From Clostridia bacterium (GTDB lineage: Bacteria; Bacillota; Clostridia; Christensenellales; Aristaeellaceae), in assembly GCA_017447185.1 (NCBI GenBank), contig JAFSOC010000026.1, positions 1 to 64,000 on the forward strand: 64,000 bases of DNA, in the 5' to 3' direction. Below are positions 7,257 to 33,024 of this stretch, in pieces (position 1 is the first letter of the stretch; the number at the start of each line of letters is the position of its first letter). Both the position numbers and the translations under genes were made by a program. The notes below the pieces were generated by a model, which saw nothing but the letters and a program-made list of their open reading frames with translations, searched no databases and was not told the origin of the DNA.

Positions 7257-7286
7257 AACTTCTGAATTTGAAGGAGGAAGAATTCA

Positions 7287-8981
7287 ATGAAGCGTAACTT
7301 TTCGGCAAGGCTCCTGGCACTGACGGTGGCACTGTTGCTGGCGGTGTTCAGCTTTGGCGGGGCGCTGGCCACTGAGCAGGGCGGCATGTTATCCGGAGCG
7401 GACGAGGCAAAGGCGCAGATGGAAGCGCTTTACGGCGAGAACCAGACGATCACCGACGGCAATTACGACGCGGCGCTGGCTGTGAAGTGCGTCAACGGCA
7501 CCTTTGTGGGCAAGAAGACGGATGAAAGCGTCATCGCGTACAAAGGCATTCCCTATGTGGGCGCGCAGCCCGTGGGGGAATACCGCTGGAAAGCTCCGGT
7601 GGATGTGGCGCCGGACGAGGGCGTATATGAGGCGTATTACTTCGGGAAGGTTCCCTGCCAGGTGGCCAATGTGGGTCAGAGGGGTTCCCTCTATCCCCAG
7701 GGCGAGGATTGCCTGCACCTGAACATTTGGAAGGCCGATGACACGGGCGATCAGAAGAAACCGGTCATGGTGTGGATCCACGGCGGCGCCTATGAGCTCG
7801 GCGGCACCCCTGAGCCCCGCGAGGAGGGCACGAACTTTGTGCATGAGAATCCGGACGTCATACTCGTCTCCGTCGAGTACCGGCTCAACGCCCTCGGCTT
7901 CCTCCACCTGTCGCATCTGCCCGACGGCGCGGACTACCCAGACGCCCAGAACCTGGGCCTGATGGATCAGATGGCGGCGCTGAAGTGGATTCACGAGAAC
8001 ATCGCGGGCTTCGGCGGCGACCCCGAACGCGTGACCATATTCGGCCAGTCTGCCGGCGGCGGCTCCGTGACCCTGCTGCCCCTGGTGGAGGGCGCGCACG
8101 AGTATTTCCAGCGCGTCATCGCCCAGAGCGGTTCGCCCGTGTTCAGCCGTTCCACGGAACAGGCCATCGAATGCACGGACGCCATTATGGATGTGCTGGG
8201 CTGCAAGACCGTGGCCGACCTGATGAACACCGACGTCGACAAGATCGTGCAGGCGGCAGGGGCAGTGGCGTCGATGCCCCTCACGACCCCTGAACGCGAC
8301 GGCGTGTTCCTGCCCAGGGAGGCGTTCGACGCCTACGAGAGCGGCGCGGCGAAGGATTTTGACATCATGCAGGGCTGCACCAAGGACGAATGCAGCTACT
8401 TCGTGGCCGTGCTTGGACCGGAGGCCTTCATGTCCATGGCTGAGAAATGCAAGGCCGAGAAGCTCTCCCAGTTGACGGAGGAGGAAAAGGCGCTGGTCGA
8501 GAGCTACCTCGCGGACAGCCAGGGCGAGGACTACGATATCCACAGCCACTTCCTGGATCAGGTCTGGTTCGACGCGCCGCTGATCCGGACGGCGGAGAAC
8601 CAGGTCAAGGGCGGCGGCAAGACCTACGTCTACTACTTCAGGGTGGAATCCTCCGTGCCGCTTTTGAAGAGCGGCCACGCGATCGAGCTTTCCGAGCTGT
8701 TCAACCATCCGGAGGATACCTTCGTCACCGGCAGGCAGTTCGACGAGACCTTCTCCAAAACCATGCGGAGGATGTGGGTGCAGTTCGCCAAGACCGGCAA
8801 CCCGTCCCTCACCGCCGAGCAGTCCCCCGACGGCCAGGCCAAGGAATGGCCGCTCTACGACCTTGAGAACAAGTACGTGATGGTGTTCGATGAATTCGAT
8901 ATCCGCCCGGAAAAGGAAGCCGACATGAATATCGTCGATTGGGACAGGACCTATTTCCTGACCAAGTACTACGTCCGTTAG
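7287..8981 (+). CDS. Secreted type B carboxylesterase, 564 aa
   Basis: GAAGGAGG precedes the ATG. Residues 1-29 are a Sec signal peptide ending GGALAT. The alpha/beta-hydrolase fold of type B carboxylesterases follows: EDCLHLNIW near 145, WIHGGAY (oxyanion hole) near 165, FGQSAGGG with nucleophile Ser255, and GHAIELSELF with the likely catalytic His near 460. Length matches the family (about 500-560). It hydrolyses carboxyl esters outside the membrane. Acetyl or feruloyl groups on plant polysaccharides are plausible substrates in this gut-type genome but not shown. It is a single gene with an unusual repeat array upstream. GC content is higher than in the neighbouring accessory genes. Confidence 0.9.
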   Translation: MKRNFSARLLALTVALLLAVFSFGGALATEQGGMLSGADEAKAQMEALYGENQTITDGNYDAALAVKCVNGTFVGKKTDESVIAYKGIPYVGAQPVGEYRWKAPVDVAPDEGVYEAYYFGKVPCQVANVGQRGSLYPQGEDCLHLNIWKADDTGDQKKPVMVWIHGGAYELGGTPEPREEGTNFVHENPDVILVSVEYRLNALGFLHLSHLPDGADYPDAQNLGLMDQMAALKWIHENIAGFGGDPERVTIFGQSAGGGSVTLLPLVEGAHEYFQRVIAQSGSPVFSRSTEQAIECTDAIMDVLGCKTVADLMNTDVDKIVQAAGAVASMPLTTPERDGVFLPREAFDAYESGAAKDFDIMQGCTKDECSYFVAVLGPEAFMSMAEKCKAEKLSQLTEEEKALVESYLADSQGEDYDIHSHFLDQVWFDAPLIRTAENQVKGGGKTYVYYFRVESSVPLLKSGHAIELSELFNHPEDTFVTGRQFDETFSKTMRRMWVQFAKTGNPSLTAEQSPDGQAKEWPLYDLENKYVMVFDEFDIRPEKEADMNIVDWDRTYFLTKYYVR

Positions 8982-9036
8982 GAACTGTGACGAAATAAGC
9001 TGCGCAGATATACTTCAACAAAGAGAGGTGCGGCCG

Positions 9037-10482
9037 ATGTATCTGGAGGAGCTGACAGGAAGTATTCCGCTGGAAAACCTTGAAGTGGAATGCAAGGCAC
9101 GTCTGGACAGAAACAATCCGCAAAGCTGGATAAAGACAGTCGGCGGATTCTCAAACGCCGCTGGCGGAATCTTCTATATCGGCGCTGAAGACAGGACCTT
9201 CAAGCTGATCGGTTTCACGCGCAAGGATGCTGACAATGAGCGGAACTACTTCAATAACCAGATTAACGAGCATGTTTTACCAAGACCGCTATACACCATT
9301 TCGTTTCTTCGGTATGAGGTGAATCAAAAAGAACTGTTCATTCTCAAAATTGAGGTGGCCGAATCCCAATACAAGCCTGTAATTGTCAGGTATGACGGTG
9401 TACCGTCTATCTATATGAGAAGGCATGGATTTACGAGCGGAGCGACATACGAAGAGATTGTTGAAATGAGCCGCAGCAGTAAAACCGTTCAGTATGATAT
9501 GCTTCCCACAGATGAGGATTATCGGCCGGAAGACTTCCAGGATCTCTTTGCCTTCTGCAAGGAAAGAAATGAAGGGAAAAATACACTGACCGGGAAAACG
9601 CTGGCATCTATGGGTTTTGTCACAGAGAGAGGCAAACTGACAAACGGCGCGCTTCTTTTCCGGGACGGATATCAGGATGGCAAGACGGAGATCCACTGCT
9701 TCGTATTTTCCGGCTTTACAAAGGGCAGTGAAAGAATCATTTCCCTGAACAAATATCGCGGGAACATCACCGGCGGAATCCAATATATGCTGGAATATGT
9801 CCGTCAGCGGATGAATCATTCCATTATAAAACTTGCTGACTCGCGGGTGAATATTGACGCTTTCCCGGAAAGGGCTTTGTTTGAAGGAATCATCAACGCG
9901 ATTGCTCACAGGGATTATGAGATAGACGGCACACAGATCCAGCTGAGCATTTTCCGCGACCGGCTGGAGATCATGTCGCCGGGAGGATTCTATCAGCGCG
10001 AGAAGATACAGAAGACCTATGATTTGTCTTCCATTATTTCAAAGCGGCGGAATGAACTGATTTGCAATGTGCTGGTCAAGTGTAACGCTATGGAGGCAGC
10101 CGGGACAGGGTTTGAAAAGATTGAAGAAGCATATCTTTCCGCAGACGAGCGGCATAAGCCTTATATCTGTACGGAATCAGATCATTTCAAGCTTGTGCTT
10201 CCGGACCTGACATATGAAGCAGGCACACAGGACAGTGATATTCCAGTCCTGGAATTTTACCCTGCAGCTAATGGAACCAGGCATGATAAAGCAGTACTGG
10301 GATACTGTTACGCCACAGCGCGTACAACGAAAGAGATCGCTGGTTATCTGGGTATCAGCGATTCCAGCTATCTGAGAAAAAACATTCTGGAAAACCTGGT
10401 TTCAGCAGGTTATCTGATTGAAATGAAAATCGGCAGAATGAAAGCATATAAAACAAATCCGGAGTCTGTACGTATTCTGTAA
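9037..10482 (+). CDS. AlbA_2-domain protein with RecG-like ATPase domain, 481 aa
   Basis: The ATG at 9037 is preferred over a GTG at 9028 because AGAGAGG then has normal spacing. Residues about 8-125 form the Schlafen AlbA_2 domain (VECKARLDRNNPQSWIKTVG, then GGFSNAAGGIFYIGAED), which binds nucleic acid. Residues about 265-385 match the HATPase_c_4 module (FPERALFEGIINAIAHRDYE, then DRLEIMSPGGF). The C-terminus looks like a winged helix (TTKEIAGYLGISDSSYLRKN). This architecture is usually called a RecG-like putative transcriptional regulator. It lies 42 bp before the Cas4-like gene and opens the defence-like run. Confidence 0.85.
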   Translation: MYLEELTGSIPLENLEVECKARLDRNNPQSWIKTVGGFSNAAGGIFYIGAEDRTFKLIGFTRKDADNERNYFNNQINEHVLPRPLYTISFLRYEVNQKELFILKIEVAESQYKPVIVRYDGVPSIYMRRHGFTSGATYEEIVEMSRSSKTVQYDMLPTDEDYRPEDFQDLFAFCKERNEGKNTLTGKTLASMGFVTERGKLTNGALLFRDGYQDGKTEIHCFVFSGFTKGSERIISLNKYRGNITGGIQYMLEYVRQRMNHSIIKLADSRVNIDAFPERALFEGIINAIAHRDYEIDGTQIQLSIFRDRLEIMSPGGFYQREKIQKTYDLSSIISKRRNELICNVLVKCNAMEAAGTGFEKIEEAYLSADERHKPYICTESDHFKLVLPDLTYEAGTQDSDIPVLEFYPAANGTRHDKAVLGYCYATARTTKEIAGYLGISDSSYLRKNILENLVSAGYLIEMKIGRMKAYKTNPESVRIL

Positions 10483-10524
10483 ATGCATTGACAAGATCAA
10501 TGAACAGAGCAGGTAATAATTCAT

Positions 10525-11229
10525 ATGGGCATCACAAAGACGGATTTCATGCGCGGCATGCAGTGCCGCAAGATGCTGTGGCTGGATAAACATAAGCCAC
10601 AGCTGAAAGTCATTCCCCCGGAAGTCCAGGCCCGCCTGGACGCGGGGAATGAATTCGGCGACAAAGCCATGGCCATGTTCGGTCCTTACGAAGAAATGAC
10701 CGTATACCTCCCGGGAAGGAAAATCCCGGATAAAAAGAAAATGGCGGAGAAAACCCAGGAACATCTCCGCCTGGGAACCCCGGTGATCTGCGAAGCAGCC
10801 TTCATCTACTACAACCATTACTGTGCAGTGGACATCCTGAAAAAGACAGATATCGGATACGACTTCTATGAAGTAAAAAACGCACCGGAGGTCCACGACC
10901 AGTTCATCAAGGACGCTGCTTTCCAGTATTACATCCTGACCCGCAGCTGTGTCAAAGTAGACCATATCTACATCGTGACCCACGGACCGGATGAGGAAAA
11001 CCCCTTCGTCCCCAATGAAATAACCGAAGAAGCCAAAGCCCTGTCCCCCTGGATCAACGACAACATCTGGGACCTGAACCGGATGCAGAAGGAAAGGGAA
11101 GAGATCAAAACAGAACCCGGGGACCAGTGCACCAACCCCTATGAATGCTGGTATTACGGCTACTGCCATAACAGCCCCAAAGAGGAACAGATGAAACTGA
11201 TCCTCGACGAACTGCCCGATCAGACATGA
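10525..11229 (+). CDS. Cas4/DUF2779-like PD-(D/E)XK protein with Fe-S cluster motif, 234 aa
   Basis: The N-terminus (TKTDFMRGMQCRKMLWL) carries the first cluster Cys of Cas4/AddB-like nucleases. Residues about 112-137 (YDFYEVKNAPEVHDQFIKDA, then FQYYIL) contain the E-x-K core and the QxxxY motif. Residues about 200-215 (GDQCTNPYECWYYGYC) supply the three remaining Cys of a [4Fe-4S] site. It thus has the complete nuclease fold but not the long C-terminal half of typical DUF2779 proteins (about 500 aa). No Cas1 or Cas2 and no CRISPR array are present, so a stand-alone defence or repair role is likelier. The ribosome site is weak. Confidence 0.75.
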   Translation: MGITKTDFMRGMQCRKMLWLDKHKPQLKVIPPEVQARLDAGNEFGDKAMAMFGPYEEMTVYLPGRKIPDKKKMAEKTQEHLRLGTPVICEAAFIYYNHYCAVDILKKTDIGYDFYEVKNAPEVHDQFIKDAAFQYYILTRSCVKVDHIYIVTHGPDEENPFVPNEITEEAKALSPWINDNIWDLNRMQKEREEIKTEPGDQCTNPYECWYYGYCHNSPKEEQMKLILDELPDQT

Positions 11230-11292
11230 CGCAAAAATGTCGCATCCCTCGATTTATACTTAAGGGGAACAAACCGGAAAAGAGGGACGAAT

Positions 11293-11550
11293 ATGCCGAA
11301 AACGGTCATCCGCATCAACAGCGTCGCAAACAAAAAGGCAACCGAAGAATACGAAGAAGTGAACCCGGAAATCTGTGACGTCTGCGGCCATGAACTCTTC
11401 GAAGATGATGACTTCTGCCCACACTGCGGTGCAGATGTCGAGAAAGAACTGCGGCCGAAGAAGCCAGCAAAGACCAACACCGGCGGCGGAGGAATCATTT
11501 TCATAATCCTTGTCGCGATCATCGTGATCTGGCTGCTGGCGAAGAAATAA
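11293..11550 (+). CDS. Zinc-ribbon protein with C-terminal membrane anchor, 85 aa
   Basis: Residues 28-47 form a rubredoxin-like zinc ribbon, CDVCG-x8-CPHCG. A Lys/Pro linker and Gly run follow, then a single transmembrane helix at the C-terminus (GIIFIILVAIIVIWLLA) ending KK. This is a tail-anchored topology with the zinc ribbon in the cytoplasm. The gene lies 63 bp after the Cas4-like gene and 15 bp before the methyltransferase. Its role is unknown. Confidence 0.75.
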   Translation: MPKTVIRINSVANKKATEEYEEVNPEICDVCGHELFEDDDFCPHCGADVEKELRPKKPAKTNTGGGGIIFIILVAIIVIWLLAKK

Positions 11551-11565
11551 AAAGGGGAGCGGAGC

Positions 11566-12162
11566 ATGGACTGGAAAGAGACAACCCTTCACTACTACGA
11601 TGTAGATCCGGACCGATATATCCGGACGGCTCTCCAGGCGGATATGTCCGAAACCCGGAGCCGCTTTACGAAGCACCTGCCAGCCCATGCCCAGATCCTT
11701 GACTTCGGCTGCGGTTCCGGCAGAGACACCAAAGCATTCCTGGAAGAGAGATTCCAGGTGGAAGCCATTGACGGATCCGAAGAACTCTGCAAAAAGGCAT
11801 CCGCATATACAGGTATCCAGGTGGAACAGATGCTGTTCAACGACCTGAATGAAACAGATAAATATGACGGGATCTGGGCTAACGCCACCCTCCTTCACCT
11901 GCCTAAAGCAGAACTCAAAGACGTCCTGCAGAAACTCGAAAAGGCCCTGAAGCCAAACGGAATCCTGTTTGCTTCCTTCAAATACGGAACCTTCGAAGGC
12001 ATCCGCACCGAACGCTACTATACCGACTTCACAAAGGATACCCTGAATGAATTCTGGGCAGCATCCACAAGCCTGAAGATCTTTGATGAATGGATCACCG
12101 ATGACACGATCCCGGGAAGGGAGGGATTGCAGTGGATCAATATTTTGGCCCGCAGGGAATAG
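11566..12162 (+). CDS. Class I SAM-dependent methyltransferase, 198 aa
   Basis: AAGGGGAG precedes the ATG. Motif I is ILDFGCGSGRDT at about residues 44-55, motif II VEAIDGSEEL near 65, and motif IV WANATLLHL near 105. The fold is complete and resembles TehB/UbiE-type small-molecule methyltransferases rather than DNA methylases (no DPPY or PC motif). The 3' end overlaps the following HNH gene by 31 bp, so the two are translationally linked. In this context it may act on a nucleotide, small molecule or protein. The substrate is unknown. Confidence 0.85.
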   Translation: MDWKETTLHYYDVDPDRYIRTALQADMSETRSRFTKHLPAHAQILDFGCGSGRDTKAFLEERFQVEAIDGSEELCKKASAYTGIQVEQMLFNDLNETDKYDGIWANATLLHLPKAELKDVLQKLEKALKPNGILFASFKYGTFEGIRTERYYTDFTKDTLNEFWAASTSLKIFDEWITDDTIPGREGLQWINILARRE

Positions 12163-13301
12163 AGATTGACACCTCTTATTACAATCATTTGGATATCCGC
12201 AGCTTTATGCTCATGCTGAAGGATCCGTCCTACTGCTATAAATTCTACTGGCTGGAAGCCATTGTAAACCTGATTTCCGAAGATGTCCGGGAAACGACCT
12301 TCAATGAGATCATCGACGAGATGATCTGCAATGCATGGTATTCCGTCCGGGAATTCCATATTCATCTGAGCGGCCTGGGCCCGAACGGGGAAGTACGGGA
12401 CGGACTGGAACGCGCCGTACTGAAGCTGTCAGAACTGAGCGACCTGCCTTCAAACGCATCAAAGGTGGAAATCAGAAACGCGATCCGGAAACATAACAGT
12501 GAACTGAAACAGGCGAAAGAGCAGCTGACCAATATGGTCCCGTACCGGGCAATGGCAGGATTCTTTGCCAGCGCCGGGGTGGAAAACATTCCGTGGGATT
12601 CCACGGTGAAAATGCGGGAAACCATTTCAGAATTCAACTTTGAAGTAACCGCGTTACCCTACACCCTGGGCGCAAACAGCAAACTGGGAAAAGAAGTCAC
12701 CTTCCATCCCGACTGGATCCGGATGATCCAGGACTATACGGTTTCCATCCTCGGATGGATCCAGTATGAAAAAGTGAAATGGCTCCAGAACAACAACCCG
12801 GAAGTGCCCGGCCTGGTCTACAAACTCCTTCCCATGGACGAGAAAATGCGAAAGCTGGGAAAAGTCCGCACCCTCTGGGAGGCAATCCTCAGCGCACAGC
12901 CTGTCACAGACGTCTTTACCGGAAAACAAATCATTCCGGGAAATTACGACATTGATCACTTTATCCCCTGGTCCTTTGTGATGAACGACGAATTATGGAA
13001 TCTGATGCCGATGGATTCCTCCCTGAATTCATCCAAAAGCAACCGTCTGCCGCAATGGGACCCGTTCTACCGCCGGTTCTCGGACAACCAGTATCTCCTC
13101 TATCAGCAGATTCAGGAGAAACCGGGCATCCACAAACTGTACGAACAGTGCTGGCGTGACAACCTGCACTCCATCTGGGCCGGCCAGGAACTGTACCGCC
13201 CCGGTAACTCCAAAGAAGCCTTCGACGCCATCCTGAGCAAAAACATGCGCCCGGTATATGATTCCGCCCGACGCCAGGGATATGAGATCTGGAAAATCTA
13301 A
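12132..13301 (+). CDS. HNH endonuclease-domain protein, 389 aa
   Basis: GTG at 12132 is chosen: GGAAGGGAGGG lies 7-10 bases upstream, inside the methyltransferase gene. Residues 1-265 are an uncharacterised helical region. Residues about 272-305 are a clear HNH motif of the Cas9/HNH_4 style: YDIDHFIPWSFVMNDELWNL, then MDSSLNSSKSNRLP. The DIDH and N...N residues fit a metal-dependent beta-beta-alpha nuclease. The usual zinc-binding Cys pairs are absent. Similar proteins occur in restriction and anti-phage loci. Coupling to the methyltransferase upstream and closeness to a helicase-nuclease downstream support a defence role. Confidence 0.8.
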   Translation: MDQYFGPQGIEIDTSYYNHLDIRSFMLMLKDPSYCYKFYWLEAIVNLISEDVRETTFNEIIDEMICNAWYSVREFHIHLSGLGPNGEVRDGLERAVLKLSELSDLPSNASKVEIRNAIRKHNSELKQAKEQLTNMVPYRAMAGFFASAGVENIPWDSTVKMRETISEFNFEVTALPYTLGANSKLGKEVTFHPDWIRMIQDYTVSILGWIQYEKVKWLQNNNPEVPGLVYKLLPMDEKMRKLGKVRTLWEAILSAQPVTDVFTGKQIIPGNYDIDHFIPWSFVMNDELWNLMPMDSSLNSSKSNRLPQWDPFYRRFSDNQYLLYQQIQEKPGIHKLYEQCWRDNLHSIWAGQELYRPGNSKEAFDAILSKNMRPVYDSARRQGYEIWKI

Positions 13302-13347
13302 AAGATAGTAAATACAAACAGACACAACTTCGGAAGGGAAGAGAAGA

Positions 13348-15486
13348 ATGAGCAATCATCCCCGTTGCTTATATGAAAACAGCTTCAGCGGATTCCTCCA
13401 TGAATCCCCAATGTCTGTCTTCGGAAAACTTTGTGATCACTTCCATGGTGAGGAACTGACAACATCCCGGGAAGCCTGGAAAGACGAAATCCGTATTATG
13501 CGGGATTTGCTTTCTCCATATGCTGCCGAAGATGGAAAAATCATCTTTGAATACGATATTCCCCGCCTTGGAAAACGGATAGATGTTGTTCTACTCTTTC
13601 GTGGCATCATTTTCTGTATTGAATTCAAGGTGGGGAAAAATCAGATCCTTGAAGCGGATGTGGATCAGGTCCTTGATTATGCGCTGGACTTGAGGAACTT
13701 TCATAAATACAGCCAGGATCATTTAATCGTTCCCATCCTGATTGCCACAGAATATAAGGGCTTCTCTACCATGGTTCAAAAATCAGATTATGACCTTCAG
13801 GTCATGAATCCACTGATAACCGGCGAGGCCCATTTTGCAGAATTGATTCAGAGCATACTGCAGAAATATCCAAATGAAGCACCTATTGATTCCAGATGGA
13901 TCATCAGCCCTTATGCACCCACACCAACGATTATCGAAGCAGCGCGGTCACTCTATGAAAACCATACAGTAGAAGATATCACGAGGCATGAAGCAGACGA
14001 AGTCTATACGGATCGGACGATTCAATATATCCTCGATGTGATCAAGGAAAGCAAAGAACAGCAGAAGAAAAGCATCTGCTTTGTTACCGGTGTACCTGGC
14101 GCAGGGAAGACGTTGGTGGGACTGGAAGTGGCGATCCGGCAGACCTACCAAAATCAAGATAAACCGGTAGAAGATGAAGGTGCTGTTTATCTATCCGGCA
14201 ATGGACCACTCGTGGCGGTACTAACAGAAGCCCTGGCTCAGGACAACTATAAAAAAGCCAAAGAGAAAAACGAAAAGAAAAAGAAGAGTGATTCCCGGAG
14301 AGAAGTGAGTAAATCCATCCAGATGATTCACCGCTACCGGGACAATATGCTGAAGAAGATCAAGAATCCCGTTGAAAACGGGAGACTTGAGATCGATCCT
14401 GAAAAGGCTGTGAAACAGGAAAAAGCCGGATTTGGTGAAGTGGAGCATGTAGCCATTTTCGATGAAGCACAGCGCTCCTGGACCCACAAGCGACTCGCGG
14501 AATACTTGAAACGCGGCGGCACTTATGGCAACAAACTGAAAGTGCCTAATTTCCCTATGTCCGAAGCAGCATTCTTGATCTGGTCCCTGGACCAGCGGGA
14601 AGACTGGGCGGTGATTGTCTGCCTCGTCGGCGGAGGCCAGGAAATCAATACTGGCGAGGCTGGCATTTCAGAATGGATCAAGGCCTTGAACGAAGACTTC
14701 CAGCAGTGGGAAGTACATATTTCCTCCAAACTGACGGAACCGGAATACGCAGAGGGAAAAGTCAACGAGCTGTTACAGGACAACCCGAATGTCATATATT
14801 CAGACAATCTGCATCTGGCAGTTTCCTTACGCTCCTTCCGAGCAGAGAAAGTGTCCGCTTTTGTGCATGCACTTTTGTCCTTTGATGAAAGTACCAGAAC
14901 TATTTACCAGGAGATCAAAGATAAATACCCGATAGTTCTGACAAGAGATATGGCCAAGGCCAGAAAGTGGCTTCATGACAATGTCAGAGGAACAGAGCGC
15001 ACTGGCGTCCTTGTAACAAAAGAATCAGCCAGATTCAAGCCCCTGGCGATCCATATTCTTCCCCCTGGCGATGAAGATACCGTCCACTGGTTCCTGGAAG
15101 ATAAAGCGGACACAAGATCCTCCAACTATCTGGAAGACGCAGCCACAGAAATACAGGTCCAGGGCCTTGAACTGGATTATACCTGCCTGCTATGGGATGC
15201 AGATATGCGCTGCGACAACGGAAAATGGCGCTTCTACACCTTCAATGGAAGAACTGAATGGAACGAGCAAAAAGGAAACACTGAAACTAAACAAGAGAAA
15301 ATGAAATACATGCTGAATGCCTACCGTGTCCTTCTTACCCGTGCCAGGAAGGGCATGGTCATCTGTGTCCCGGAAGGCAACGGCAACAAGACCGCAAGCG
15401 GATTCTGGGAAGACAGCACAAGACTTCCCGAATACTACAACGGGACCTATGAATACTTAAAGAGCATAGGAATAGACGAGATTTGA
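13348..15486 (+). CDS. PD-(D/E)XK nuclease fused to DUF2075 helicase, 712 aa
   Basis: GGAAGGGAAGAG precedes the ATG. Residues about 70-115 look like a PD-(D/E)XK nuclease (KRIDVVLLFRGIIFCIEFKV, then GKNQILEADVDQVLDYALDL; catalytic D, E-x-K and Q). Residues about 225-700 are the DUF2075 ATPase of superfamily I, also found in Schlafen proteins: Walker A GVPGAGKT near 247-254, Walker B VAIFDEAQRSW near 369, and motif VI-like AYRVLLTRARKGM near the C-terminus. A Lys-rich insert lies at about 300-330. The predicted job is ATP-driven nucleic acid translocation with cleavage. Such proteins are repeatedly found in defence islands. Confidence 0.85.
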   Translation: MSNHPRCLYENSFSGFLHESPMSVFGKLCDHFHGEELTTSREAWKDEIRIMRDLLSPYAAEDGKIIFEYDIPRLGKRIDVVLLFRGIIFCIEFKVGKNQILEADVDQVLDYALDLRNFHKYSQDHLIVPILIATEYKGFSTMVQKSDYDLQVMNPLITGEAHFAELIQSILQKYPNEAPIDSRWIISPYAPTPTIIEAARSLYENHTVEDITRHEADEVYTDRTIQYILDVIKESKEQQKKSICFVTGVPGAGKTLVGLEVAIRQTYQNQDKPVEDEGAVYLSGNGPLVAVLTEALAQDNYKKAKEKNEKKKKSDSRREVSKSIQMIHRYRDNMLKKIKNPVENGRLEIDPEKAVKQEKAGFGEVEHVAIFDEAQRSWTHKRLAEYLKRGGTYGNKLKVPNFPMSEAAFLIWSLDQREDWAVIVCLVGGGQEINTGEAGISEWIKALNEDFQQWEVHISSKLTEPEYAEGKVNELLQDNPNVIYSDNLHLAVSLRSFRAEKVSAFVHALLSFDESTRTIYQEIKDKYPIVLTRDMAKARKWLHDNVRGTERTGVLVTKESARFKPLAIHILPPGDEDTVHWFLEDKADTRSSNYLEDAATEIQVQGLELDYTCLLWDADMRCDNGKWRFYTFNGRTEWNEQKGNTETKQEKMKYMLNAYRVLLTRARKGMVICVPEGNGNKTASGFWEDSTRLPEYYNGTYEYLKSIGIDEI

Positions 15487-15550
15487 AAAGTCTACTTGTT
15501 TTCCACATCCTGTTTCTGTATTCTATTAGCATAGATGGAGGTGTCCAAAT

Positions 15551-15757
15551 ATGACGAAGCAAGATTCATTCGACTATCTCAAGGCTATGCAGGATTACGA
15601 CAAATCCCTTGGCAGAAAAGAGGATAAAGATCTTCCCCTGAAATATACAACGACACCGGATGGCGGTGTGGACTATCTGGATGTTTCCCGGGGATATGAA
15701 AAGTACCTGGTTAAGAGTGGCTTTATCAAGGCTCCCGGAAAGAAACAAAAGAAATAA
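15551..15757 (+). CDS. Small charged hypothetical protein, 68 aa
   Basis: GATGGAGGTG precedes the ATG. The protein is hydrophilic with a Lys-rich tail (PGKKQKK) and no membrane or metal motif. DFDYLKAMQ-like N-terminal and VDYLDVSRGYEKYLVKSGF C-terminal segments suggest two short helices. I recognise no family. It lies 64 bp after the helicase gene and 29 bp before the next, so it belongs to the same run. Confidence 0.6.
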   Translation: MTKQDSFDYLKAMQDYDKSLGRKEDKDLPLKYTTTPDGGVDYLDVSRGYEKYLVKSGFIKAPGKKQKK

Positions 15758-15786
15758 GTGAGTAACTACTGAAAGGATAAACTATC

Positions 15787-16089
15787 ATGACCCAGGAACA
15801 CCAGAACGAGCTGATTCTGCTCTCCCAAAAAGTATACGACCAGGCCACGGATGAAATCACCAATTACTGCGCAGCCAAATACTGCGGTGTTGGCAATGAC
15901 ACCACAGAACAACAACTGGAAGATTATCTGTTCGTGGCGGAGGGAACCAGCACTTACCTGCTGGGAAATGCGTTTGCCCTATTGGATCCGGCTTCCAGAG
16001 AAGCGGAAATTGAATCCTTTGTGAAAGAACTTCGCCGGGTGATTACGACCGCGGAGGAGAAATTTCGCCAGGGAGATAAACTGAACTGA
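15787..16089 (+). CDS. Helical hypothetical protein, 100 aa
   Basis: AAAGGAT precedes the ATG. The protein appears all-helical and acidic, with a YCAAKYCG motif near residue 27-34 and a C-terminal helix FVKELRRVITTAEEKF. There is no signal peptide. No family is recognised. It sits in the defence-like run between the 68-aa protein and the macro-domain protein. Confidence 0.6.
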   Translation: MTQEHQNELILLSQKVYDQATDEITNYCAAKYCGVGNDTTEQQLEDYLFVAEGTSTYLLGNAFALLDPASREAEIESFVKELRRVITTAEEKFRQGDKLN

Positions 16090-16140
16090 AGAAACAGGAG
16101 CAACACTGGAAGAACTGTGCAACTATAAAGAGGTGTACTT

Positions 16141-17169
16141 ATGCCATTTGAAATTGTCAACGGAGACATTACCAAACTGAACGTGGACGCCATTGTGAAT
16201 GCTGCCAACAATACCCTTCTTGGCGGCGGAGGCGTGGACGGCGCCATCCACCGGGCCGCAGGACCGGAACTGCTGAAAGAATGCATGACGCTGGGCGGGT
16301 GTGAGACCGGACAGGCGAAAATCACCAAAGGCTATAACCTTCCGGCGAAGTATGTCATCCATACAGTGGGACCGATCTGGCAGGGCGGAAAAGCGAATGA
16401 ACCGGAACTGCTTGCTTCCTGCTACACGAATTCCCTGAAGCTGGCGACACAATACGAATGTGAAACGGTTGCTTTCCCGCTGATCTCTTCAGGTGCCTAC
16501 GGCTATCCGAAGATGGACGCAATGGAAATCGCCGGCGAAACCATCAAGGAATACATCCGGGAACATGATATGCATGTGTTCCTGGTGATCTTCGGGCATG
16601 AGAGCTTCTTCCGGAACAAGCCGCTGTACCAGACCGTGCAGGAATATATTGAGAAGCACTACAACGAATTCGCAGCAGAAGCAATATGCGAGGGCAATTC
16701 CCGGTATTACGCGGAAACGCGCAGGAGAAGGGAATGGGACTTCGAAAATCACCCGCCCCTTGAAAGCAAGAAACTGTCCATTGAAGACGTGGATTGGGAA
16801 GAAGTGATCAACCAGACCGATAAGGGTTTCTCCCAGACGCTCCAGGATATGATTGCCGCGCGGGGCATCAAGGATTCAAAATGCTACAATGATGCCCAGA
16901 TAGACAAACGGCTTTTCAGCAAAATCAAATCAGACCCGCAATACAGGCCGAGCAAACCGACCGTGTTTGCCTTTGCCATTGCACTGCACCTGAACCTGAA
17001 AGAAACGGAAGCACTGCTGGAAACAGCGGGATATTCAATATCGAACAGCAGCAAGTTTGACCTGATCCTGCGATGCTGTATCGGGAACCGGATCTACAAT
17101 GTCGGACAGATCAATGAAGTTCTGTATGAATACGATCTTCCGCAGATGGGATCTGTCGCAAACGAGTAA
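16141..17169 (+). CDS. Macro-domain protein with C-terminal helical domain, 342 aa
   Basis: Residues 1-165 are a complete macro domain of the MacroD/YmdB type: [19 protein letters not shown] with the key Asn residues, [17 protein letters not shown], and [11 protein letters not shown] for the phosphate loop. Such domains bind ADP-ribose and remove it from proteins, nucleic acids or O-acetyl-ADP-ribose. Residues about 200-342 are a separate helical domain ([20 protein letters not shown]) resembling the C-terminal part seen on many Firmicutes macro proteins, possibly a helix-turn-helix. It closes the defence-like run, directly before a strong terminator. In that setting it might reverse ADP-ribosylation or sense an ADP-ribose signal. 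Confidence 0.88.
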
Positions 17170-17190
17170 TTCCCCCAAAATTTTTCAAAA

Positions 17191-17216
17191 GGTCGCATGG
17201 CGTGCGACCTTTTTTA
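17191..17216 (+). terminator. Strong terminator of the 9-17 kb run
   Basis: GGTCGCA-TGGCG-TGCGACC is followed by TTTTTT, 22 bp after the macro-domain stop codon. Confidence 0.85.
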
Positions 17217-32555: not shown

Positions 32556-32585
32556 ATATACCCGGTAGTTATACCGGGTATTCTT
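32556..32585 (+). terminator. Hairpin upstream of the double-glycine peptide promoter
   Basis: ATACCCGGT pairs with ACCGGGTAT and is followed by TCTT. It isolates the peptide gene from upstream transcription. Confidence 0.5.
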
Positions 32586-32632
32586 GCGTCCGGATATCGT
32601 GGGTTCGGTTGGTAAGGTCGGTTGGCAAGTGA

Positions 32633-32661
32633 TTGCCAAGTCGCTTTTCCGTACGTATAAT
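32633..32661 (+). promoter_or_regulatory. Promoter of the double-glycine peptide gene at 32713
   Basis: TTGCCA, 17-bp spacer, TATAAT, 51 bp before the start codon. Confidence 0.65.
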
Positions 32662-32712
32662 ATAAGGAGCGTAAGGCTCATATCCATTAAGACGATGAAG
32701 GGAGTAACCATC

Positions 32713-33024
32713 ATGGAAGATCAGAAAAAGGAACTGAACACAGACACACTGGAAGAAGTCAGCGGTGGCTCTTTTGTTCATACGGAAGCCAGCATTCGGG
32801 GGGCCGGCATCGATCTGCTGCTGGATGACGGAAAAACCCCCGGGGAATTCGGCTATCTCTGGAACACCGGTGATTATTATTTCAAAGGAAAGAAACTGAC
32901 AGACAAAGAGATCAAGGCCTTGCAGAAGTACAAGGAGCACTATGGCAAGATTGCTCCTTCCCTGGATGAAGCCTGGGCATATTTCAAAGGCCACAGTAAC
33001 ACAATGAAGAAAATAGTCATGTGA
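32713..33024 (+). CDS. Double-glycine-leader precursor-like protein, 103 aa
   Basis: AAGGGAG precedes the ATG. The leader MEDQKKELNTDTLEEVSGG ends in Gly18-Gly19. The 84-residue remainder is long for a class II bacteriocin: Gly/Asp-rich at first (IRGAGIDLLLDDGKTPGEFG), aromatic in the middle (YLWNTGDYYFKGKKL) and helical at the end (EHYGKIAPSLDEAWAYFKGH). It has no Cys. It has its own promoter, and a secreted protein gene follows within 150 bp. No transporter or modifying enzyme is adjacent. Export by a C39-type transporter elsewhere is inferred. Confidence 0.65.
   Translation: MEDQKKELNTDTLEEVSGGSFVHTEASIRGAGIDLLLDDGKTPGEFGYLWNTGDYYFKGKKLTDKEIKALQKYKEHYGKIAPSLDEAWAYFKGHSNTMKKIVM

What the first reader, a model, noticed from the sequence alone, without database searches (positions are those of the whole stretch)
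9037..17169. Compact defence-like run with a Cas4-like protein, methyltransferase-HNH pair, nuclease-helicase and macro domain
Nine same-strand genes with gaps of at most 64 bp (and one 31-bp overlap) end at one strong terminator. They encode an AlbA_2/ATPase regulator, Cas4-like Fe-S PD-(D/E)XK protein, zinc-ribbon membrane protein, SAM methyltransferase, HNH nuclease, PD-(D/E)XK-DUF2075 helicase, two small unknowns and a macro-domain protein. The single families are known from defence islands; I do not recall this exact set as a described system. Two or three nuclease domains plus an ADP-ribose-binding protein suggest restriction of foreign nucleic acid with a signalling or protection component. 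That all nine form one system is inference; it may be two adjacent systems (split near 13.3 kb).
Basis: partly seen in the sequence, partly recalled or inferred. Interest (0 to 1): 0.72.

Follow-up and report, generated by a model that had tools for sequence, protein, structure and literature searches.

The report
Defence island with methyltransferase–HNH nuclease cassette
A gut-type bacterium carries a patchwork of likely anti-virus genes whose heart is a small shared gene pair, a methyltransferase coupled to a Cas9-like DNA-cutting enzyme, that reappears in relatives beside several different known anti-virus systems and whose function is untested.

Summary
The nine ORFs, their spacing and the terminator are real, but the evidence is against one nine-gene system. 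Among the best 80 of 247 loci found with the HNH protein, a small SAM methyltransferase (MTase) gene abuts HNH in 63. In 36 of those genomes 30 of 37 MTase copies lie within 500 nt of HNH, same strand. The HNH protein keeps four Cas9-type catalytic residues; no DNA-MTase motif IV was found in the MTases. The pair re-assorts: in relatives it forms runs with SauUSI-like helicase + NUDIX or DUF2075 + MazG, or stands by PDC-S41 (the window's partner), Wadjet, DISARM-like, Druantia or Zac genes. NUDIX–MTase fusions occur at 8 places. The macro protein is weakly enriched; the other five genes show no support. Best reading: a composite defence island with an apparently undescribed MTase–HNH auxiliary nuclease cassette. 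PADLOC-DB 2.0 matched this HNH family only through Cas9 HNH domains. Function is inferred.

The parts
9037..10482 (+). g1: AlbA_2 (Schlafen) + HATPase_c_4 protein, 481 aa; not shown to belong to the cassette
   Evidence: Pfam PF04326 E=3e-14, PF13749 E=4e-18; not found at the 80 HNH loci
10525..11229 (+). g2: weakly Cas4-like protein, 234 aa; not linked to HNH in relatives
   Evidence: PADLOC Cas4 E=0.014 only; family in 27 of 150 family genomes; not near HNH in the 5 others that hold both
11293..11550 (+). g3: zinc-ribbon protein, 85 aa; no link shown
   Evidence: Pfam Zn_Ribbon_1 E=1e-5; not found at the 80 HNH loci
11566..12162 (+). g4: class I SAM methyltransferase of the cassette, 198 aa
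   Evidence: Methyltransf_25 E=2e-14; conserved SAM motif, no DNA-MTase motif IV found; abuts HNH in 63 of 80 loci
12132..13301 (+). g5: HNH_4 nuclease of the cassette, 389 aa, overlapping g4 by 31 nt
   Evidence: HNH_4 E=3e-11; D275, H276, N290, N299 invariant in 36 sequences
13348..15486 (+). g6: PDC-S41; Schlafen group 3 helicase with an N-terminal region that looks PD-(D/E)XK-like by eye, 712 aa
   Evidence: PF09848 E=3e-67; PADLOC PDC-S41 E=3e-244; 4 of 5 copies within 5 kb of HNH
15551..15757 (+). g7: 68-aa orphan
   Evidence: no family; 1 of 150 family genomes, its own
15787..16089 (+). g8: 100-aa protein of unknown function
   Evidence: 4 of 150 family genomes including its own; one relative precedes a PDC-S26 gene, others lie by WYL-like genes by eye
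16141..17169 (+). g9: macro domain + unassigned C-terminal half, 342 aa; weakly associated
   Evidence: PF01661 E=1e-47; relatives in 119 of 150 family genomes; macro-cluster gene in 8 of 80 HNH loci
17187..17213 (+). terminator-like hairpin ending the run
   Evidence: 12-pair stem, T-rich tail

Best explanation
The stretch is a composite defence island. Its core is a two-gene cassette, a small SAM methyltransferase overlapping a Cas9-type HNH nuclease gene, here next to the nuclease-helicase PDC-S41; the other genes look like separately acquired neighbours, with the macro protein a possible loose associate. Shown: recurrent adjacency of MTase and HNH, intact catalytic residues, repeated re-association with helicase-nucleases, nucleotide pyrophosphohydrolases and known defence systems, and NUDIX-MTase fusions. 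Inferred: the HNH protein is an auxiliary DNA-cutting effector, brought onto or licensed on invading DNA by a partner helicase-nuclease (PDC-S41 in the window), and cuts or nicks it. The MTase modulates this by modifying something other than a classical restriction site, perhaps a nucleotide or a protein; this step has the weakest support. The odds given are for a composite island with a DNA-cutting auxiliary cassette, whether or not PDC-S41 cooperates with it; the rivals are not all exclusive of it.
For: MTase abuts HNH in 63 of 80 loci: 57 upstream and 5 downstream plus L086 as a NUDIX-MTase fusion 17 nt downstream. 53 of the 57 upstream cases overlap when HNH is read from its most upstream start. 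In 36 genomes 30 of 37 MTase copies are within 500 nt of HNH, same strand. L080 has an unrelated class I MTase (21% identity) 3 nt before HNH, a possible substitution. Cas9-type D/H/N/N residues are invariant in 36 sequences and the motif is in 77 of 79 ORFs. Runs: DUF3427-NUDIX-MTase-HNH, D2075b-MazG-MTase-HNH, PDC-S41 before NUDIX-MTase and HNH. Neighbours include Wadjet JetA/C/D, PDC-M27B/C, DrmD-like, DruE1, DrmA/B, MzaC, Orf5/HEC-06 and ZacABC. Run neighbours hit 128 PADLOC models at E<=1e-20 (102 proteins) against 17 for 100 proteins more than 6 kb from HNH. Partner state changes at least 30 times on the HNH tree. NUDIX-MTase fusions at 8 places.
Against: No assay exists. 9 of 39 HNH copies have no MTase within 500 nt and 4 of 36 genomes have no MTase relative at E<=1e-20, so the pair is not obligatory. 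Many loci show MTase-HNH alone with no helicase in the run. In the 150-genome family sample only 3 of 12 genomes with an MTase match at E<=1e-20 have it beside HNH, and only 1 of 5 strong PDC-S41 homologues is with HNH. Order of PDC-S41 and the pair is not conserved, which fits shared residence in islands as well. The MTase has a partial PADLOC match to mad2 (E=2e-14, residues 41-144), which I take as generic MTase similarity. The PADLOC counts are of models, inflated by multi-model families, the tool does not say how many proteins matched, and the control proteins were shorter in total (about 31,000 against 42,089 residues). The 80 loci are not dereplicated.
Confidence: 0.55

Rival explanations
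1. Classical restriction-modification: the MTase methylates DNA sites and protects the host from the HNH endonuclease.
For: MTase first, nuclease second, overlapping genes in most loci; an unrelated class I MTase takes the place in L080.
Against: 0 of 67 proteins of the MTase cluster (which also holds NUDIX proteins) carry a DPPY/NPPF-like or PCQ-like motif; 4 of 36 genomes keep HNH with no MTase relative at E<=1e-20; solved structures matched by sequence are not named as DNA MTases.
Confidence: 0.15
2. Plain defence-island company: MTase-HNH and PDC-S41 are independent systems that merely share islands; nothing functional joins them in the window. (This concerns only the PDC-S41 link and is compatible with the rest of the best explanation.)
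For: Order and spacing vary between loci; of the strong PDC-S41 copies, 4 in the family sample and 1 in the 36 HNH genomes are not near HNH; partners change at least 30 times on the tree.
Against: 4 of 5 PDC-S41 copies in HNH genomes are within 5 kb and same strand; 46-nt gap in the window; 7-nt gap in L086.
Confidence: 0.4
3. Toxin-antidote pair: the MTase neutralises a self-toxic HNH protein and the pair acts as an addiction or abortive module.
For: MTase upstream in 57 of 80 loci, overlapping in 53 of these.
Against: HNH stands without MTase within 500 nt in 9 of 39 copies; the MTase lies downstream in 6 loci (three of these have identical HNH proteins).
Confidence: 0.12
4. One nine-gene system.
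For: Nine same-strand genes with short gaps and one terminator.
Against: Within the flanks held, no other HNH locus has more than four of the nine families; g1, g3, g7, g8 were not seen at the 80 loci; g2 is unlinked in the 5 other family genomes that hold both.
Confidence: 0.03

Closest known systems
PADLOC PDC-S41 (candidate defence gene)
   Same: g6 matches over nearly its full length, E=3e-244
   Different: A one-gene candidate by its name (S for single is recalled); here, and in 4 of the 36 HNH genomes, it lies within 5 kb of HNH. A search for its name found no paper in the held library.
SauUSI-type type IV restriction enzymes (PLD + helicase + DUF3427; PADLOC mREase_IV)
   Same: Frequent partner of the cassette in relatives (13 of 79 runs; E=6e-190)
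   Different: No match in the window; SauUSI works as one polypeptide on m5C/hm5C DNA (PMC3874153, passages seen).
Auxiliary and backup nucleases of BREX and BREX-related loci
   Same: A 2026 survey reports HNH (standalone and fused) and other nucleases attached to BREX operons as auxiliary effectors, and Schlafen proteins fused to a minimal histidine kinase and wHTH, resembling g1 (PMC12839542, passages seen)
   Different: The passages seen do not mention this HNH family with an MTase partner or NUDIX fusion; its supplements were not seen, so overlap cannot be excluded.
Cas9 HNH domain
   Same: Only named match of the HNH part among solved structures; four catalytic residues line up (Cas9 numbering recalled)
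   Different: No RuvC domain hit in Pfam; an unassigned N-terminal part of about 240 aa.
Ssp phosphorothioation clusters
   Same: Distant HNH relatives (23-28%) lie among ssp genes on a Hymenobacter plasmid (SspB, SspC) and Synechocystis pSYSM (SspC)
   Different: No ssp-type match among the nine ORFs; no class I MTase annotated directly beside those two HNH genes, though the plasmid gene tables are incomplete.

Membership tests
PDC-S41 | full-length match to the PADLOC model | tested here: met
   residues 6-712 to model 3-653 of 657, E=3e-244
PDC-S41 | anti-phage activity | not testable with these tools
   needs an assay; no paper found by name
Type II restriction-modification | MTase with DNA-MTase motif IV | tested here: not met
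   0 of 67 cluster members by pattern; Pfam gives generic class I families
Type II restriction-modification | endonuclease accompanied by its MTase | tested here: not met
   9 of 39 HNH copies without MTase within 500 nt
Type II restriction-modification | intact endonuclease residues | tested here: met
   invariant HNH residues; sequence only
Cas4 | convincing match to Cas4 models | tested here: not met
   PADLOC Cas4 E=0.014, no Pfam Cas4 hit
Bacterial Schlafen (AlbA_2) | SLFN_AlbA_2 domain fused to HATPase | tested here: met
   the wHTH of the described type gave no Pfam hit
Bacterial Schlafen (AlbA_2) | RNase catalytic acids | not tested
   not examined
Type IV SauUSI-like | PLD + helicase + DUF3427 protein at the locus | tested here: not met
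   no window ORF matched the DUF3427 reference

The most novel reading that the evidence does not exclude
The MTase, often fused to a NUDIX hydrolase, and the HNH nuclease form a mobile add-on that polices modified nucleotides: NUDIX and MTase act on odd nucleotides in the pool while the HNH protein, docked on whatever helicase-nuclease the host carries (SauUSI-like, DUF2075, PDC-S41, Zac, Wadjet, Druantia, DISARM-like), cuts DNA that contains or lacks them. It would be a plug-in effector shared across otherwise unrelated defence systems.
Probability: 0.15. Interest if true: 0.8.

Novelty: new variant of a known kind. Interest (0 to 1): 0.52.

Why it matters
If right, one small nuclease cassette serves as an exchangeable effector for several defence systems in gut and rumen Clostridia, and PADLOC-DB 2.0 matched its HNH protein only through Cas9 HNH domains. 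The NUDIX–MTase fusions give a directly testable clue to the substrate. It might also explain why helicase-nuclease plus nucleotide-pyrophosphohydrolase pairs travel with it.

Tried and rejected
Rejected: one nine-gene system (only MTase–HNH, PDC-S41 and weakly the macro gene recur). Rejected: Cas4 identity of g2. Disfavoured: phage cargo. The viral-contig scan confirmed 0 of 18 pattern matches (only two exact peptide patterns, so weak), and the single hit in the phage collection (MT836554, unverified) carries the same gene run as the Fusicatenibacter locus L030, its DUF3427 protein being 99% identical. Uninformative: the promoter scan. A profile search of solved structures with the HNH alignment gave Cas9 entries, one entry named '60 kDa protein' (E=0.0067, profile positions 57-249, not followed up) and one weak entry YIII(Dq)4CqI (E=1.2); the N-terminal part stays unassigned. 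Literature: the ten searches listed no paper on this pair, but most were narrow conjunctions, one search matched unrelated strain names, no preprints are held, and of the papers listed I saw passages of only three (PMC7159879, PMC12839542, PMC3874153); absence from print is not shown.

Not done: structure prediction and fold search (switched off), empty-site test of the island, MTase tree, comparison with newer defence catalogues, supplements of the BREX paper.

Limits of the counts. The 80 loci are the best of 247 and not dereplicated (L061 and L070, and L047 and L058, come from the same isolates; L075, L077, L078 have identical HNH proteins). The 36 genomes are 36 of the 80 loci, picked by me mainly for long flanks. 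For one search I kept 39 of the 44 HNH rows: five short fragments were dropped, while the divergent 23% stretch G180:C18 was kept and counts as one adjacent pair; without it the counts are 29 of 38 and 29 of 37. Spacings from my gene caller use the most upstream start, so overlaps may be overstated, and that caller merges or misses genes: it shows the MTase in 53 of 79 runs where tblastn finds more. L066 gave no HNH ORF and is missing and the tree; L076 and L083 (truncated frames) were also left out of the tree. Partner labels were assigned by hand, some within the run and some within about six genes. Two L027 rows were dropped from the control list because they were in the neighbour set.
Full report
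Observation. The nine ORFs are present as described, on one strand, with gaps of 42, 63, 15, -31, 46, 64, 29 and 51 nt, and the run ends at a 12-pair terminator-like hairpin at 17187-17213. The gene after it is a SIMPL-domain gene; the one before looks like an esterase, and the genes further right like sugar transport and a LacI-type regulator (my reading of the ORFs). GC of the run is 0.49 against 0.54 for the window, and third-position GC varies among the genes.

Identity of the parts. [quoted passage not shown] g2 is at best Cas4-like (PADLOC E=0.014). g3 is a zinc ribbon. g4 is a class I SAM MTase; PADLOC gives it a partial match to mad2 (E=2e-14), which I take as generic MTase similarity. 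g5 is an HNH_4 protein whose HNH part matches Cas9 HNH domains. g6 is a Schlafen group 3 helicase and a full-length PDC-S41. g7 and g8 have no family. g9 is a macro protein.

The MTase–HNH pair. A scan of the genome collection with the HNH protein confirmed 247 relatives and kept the best 80 loci, mostly Lachnospiraceae and other Clostridia by their titles. By tblastn the MTase is directly upstream in 57 and downstream in 5; 53 of the 57 overlap HNH when its most upstream start is used. L086, listed there as without MTase, has it 17 nt downstream as a NUDIX–MTase fusion, giving 63 of 80. Of the other 17, L083 has an MTase fragment in frame with HNH and L080 has an unrelated class I MTase 3 nt upstream. 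In 36 whole genomes behind 36 of these loci, 30 of 37 MTase copies (E<=1e-20) lie within 500 nt of HNH on the same strand, and 30 of 39 HNH copies have the MTase (five HNH fragments dropped, one divergent 23% stretch kept; without it 29 of 37 and 29 of 38). Four of the 36 genomes have no MTase relative at that cut-off. In a sample of 150 genomes of the window's own family, HNH occurs in 7 and the MTase at E<=1e-20 in 12, of which 3 are together; so the MTase family is wider than the pairing.

Residues. In 36 aligned HNH proteins D275, H276, N290 and N299 are invariant; they line up with the catalytic D, H, N, N of Cas9 HNH (recalled). A motif pattern passed in 77 of 79 ORFs (the two that fail are the truncated L076 frame and L084). 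A glycine-rich SAM motif pattern was found in 52 of 67 proteins of the MTase cluster, which also includes NUDIX proteins; a DNA-MTase motif IV pattern in none.

Company. In same-strand runs with gaps up to 100 nt, 79 loci gave NUDIX in 14, DUF3427 helicase in 13, DUF2075 (D2075b) and MazG in 7 each, WYL in 5, PDC-S41 in 2, macro in 2, ZacABC in 1. The DUF3427 protein is PADLOC mREase_IV (E=6e-190), the NUDIX is PDC-S07 (E=8e-49). L077 shows D2075b–MazG–DUF3427–NUDIX–HNH–MTase with gaps of 6, 3, 2, -4 and 0 nt. NUDIX and MTase are one protein in L013, L022, L031, L032 and L086 and share one open frame in L074 and in one further copy each of the L075 and L077 genomes. The pair also follows Wadjet JetA/C/D (L039), PDC-M27B/C (L056), DrmD-like and TmtA-like genes (L057), a run starting with DrmA/DrmB (L071), Druantia DruE1 (L085) and an Orf5/HEC-06 gene (L020), and precedes MzaC (L048) and ZacABC (L009). 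These are single loci each. A same-genus genome, G091, has a type II R-M pair, a 44% PDC-S41 relative and ZacABC, then HNH (82%) directly after without MTase. Unlabelled run neighbours matched 128 PADLOC models at E<=1e-20 (102 proteins) against 17 for 100 proteins more than 6 kb away. These are counts of models, inflated by families with many models; the tool does not say how many proteins matched, and the control proteins were shorter. Of the 20 neighbours scanned one by one, 14 had a PADLOC match at E<=1e-10 and 6 had none; these 20 were chosen by me as the larger ones.

Link to PDC-S41 and the rest. PDC-S41 occurs in 5 of the 36 HNH genomes, 4 times within 5 kb and on the same strand as HNH (about 1e-9 under uniform placement, which ignores island clustering). 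In the family sample 5 of 150 genomes have a strong homologue and only the window's own is with HNH. L086 is the best match to the window: PDC-S41, HNH, NUDIX–MTase, macro in one run. Macro-cluster genes lie in 8 of 80 loci at 0.2-7 kb from HNH, but macro relatives are in 119 of 150 family genomes, so this is weak. In the 5 other family genomes that hold both, the short g2 relative is 66 kb or more from HNH or on another contig. g7 was found in its own genome only and g8 in 4 of 150.

History. On a quick tree of 81 HNH proteins (two of them outgroups) the place of the MTase changes at least 19 times, the hand-assigned partner state at least 30 times, PDC-S41 association 5 times and DUF3427 12 times (35 of 76 inner branches have support under 80, and no shuffled control was run). 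The window's smallest starred set of six rows (window, L008, L009, L010, L018, L171) holds PDC-S41, ZacABC, a Cas4-like gene and no such partner, with the MTase upstream, downstream or absent. L080 comes from a spirochaete MAG inside Bacillota, a transfer or a binning error.

Distant kin. Relatives at 23-30% over most of the protein lie on plasmids; in Hymenobacter they sit with SspB and SspC and an annotated cysteine desulfurase, and in Synechocystis pSYSM with an SspC-type and DUF4007 gene and a cysteine desulfurase. An Allochromatium plasmid has a class I MTase 1.2 kb from HNH on the other strand. In same-genus genomes 33-35% relatives lie beside an mREase_IV-type helicase and, by eye, a MazG-like gene (L173) or a DrmD/DpdE-like helicase (L175). 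None of six distant HNH proteins scanned matched a PADLOC model at E<=1e-8, and the window's matched only Cas9 models.

Mechanism. I take the HNH protein to be a DNA-cutting auxiliary effector and PDC-S41 its likely local partner, with the MTase a modulator whose substrate is probably not a restriction site. The first is inferred from residues and company, the second from position, the third from motifs, fusions and the MTase-less copies. Whether MTase–HNH and PDC-S41 cooperate or only share an island is close to even on this evidence.

Verdict.

Noticed in passing
window 7260-9009: The esterase-like block just before the run is 98% identical over 1750 nt to a 4.8-kb contig from another genus of the family (L179), where it again lies next to an MTase (45%) and an HNH remnant (31%); recent transfer or a MAG artefact.
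   Followed up: partly
window 32584-33024: Small ORF containing ...KKELNTDTLEEVSGG..., which looks like a double-glycine leader of a bacteriocin-type peptide (my reading).
   Followed up: no
L172 9056-10610; L120, L122: A relative of the 100-aa g8 protein sits directly before a PDC-S26 gene (L172), others beside genes that look like WYL regulators, so g8 may belong to another small defence unit.
   Followed up: partly
L077, L051, L022: Compact runs stack two helicase + nucleotide-pyrophosphohydrolase pairs (DUF2075-MazG and DUF3427-NUDIX, or DUF2075-MazG and PDC-S41 with NUDIX-MTase) around HNH.
   Followed up: partly
L169 (MT836554.1): A record labelled Bacteriophage sp. carries the same gene run as L030 of Fusicatenibacter, with a 99% identical DUF3427 protein; probably a mislabelled bacterial contig.
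   Followed up: yes
G180:C18:30594-31710: A very divergent HNH stretch (23%) lies beside an MTase copy (37%) in the L075 genome, hinting at an older paired lineage.
   Followed up: no
G034:C53:16402-16980, G038:C5:8923-9495: MTase relatives at 46% and 40% without an HNH match in their genomes; what they pair with was not worked out.
   Followed up: partly
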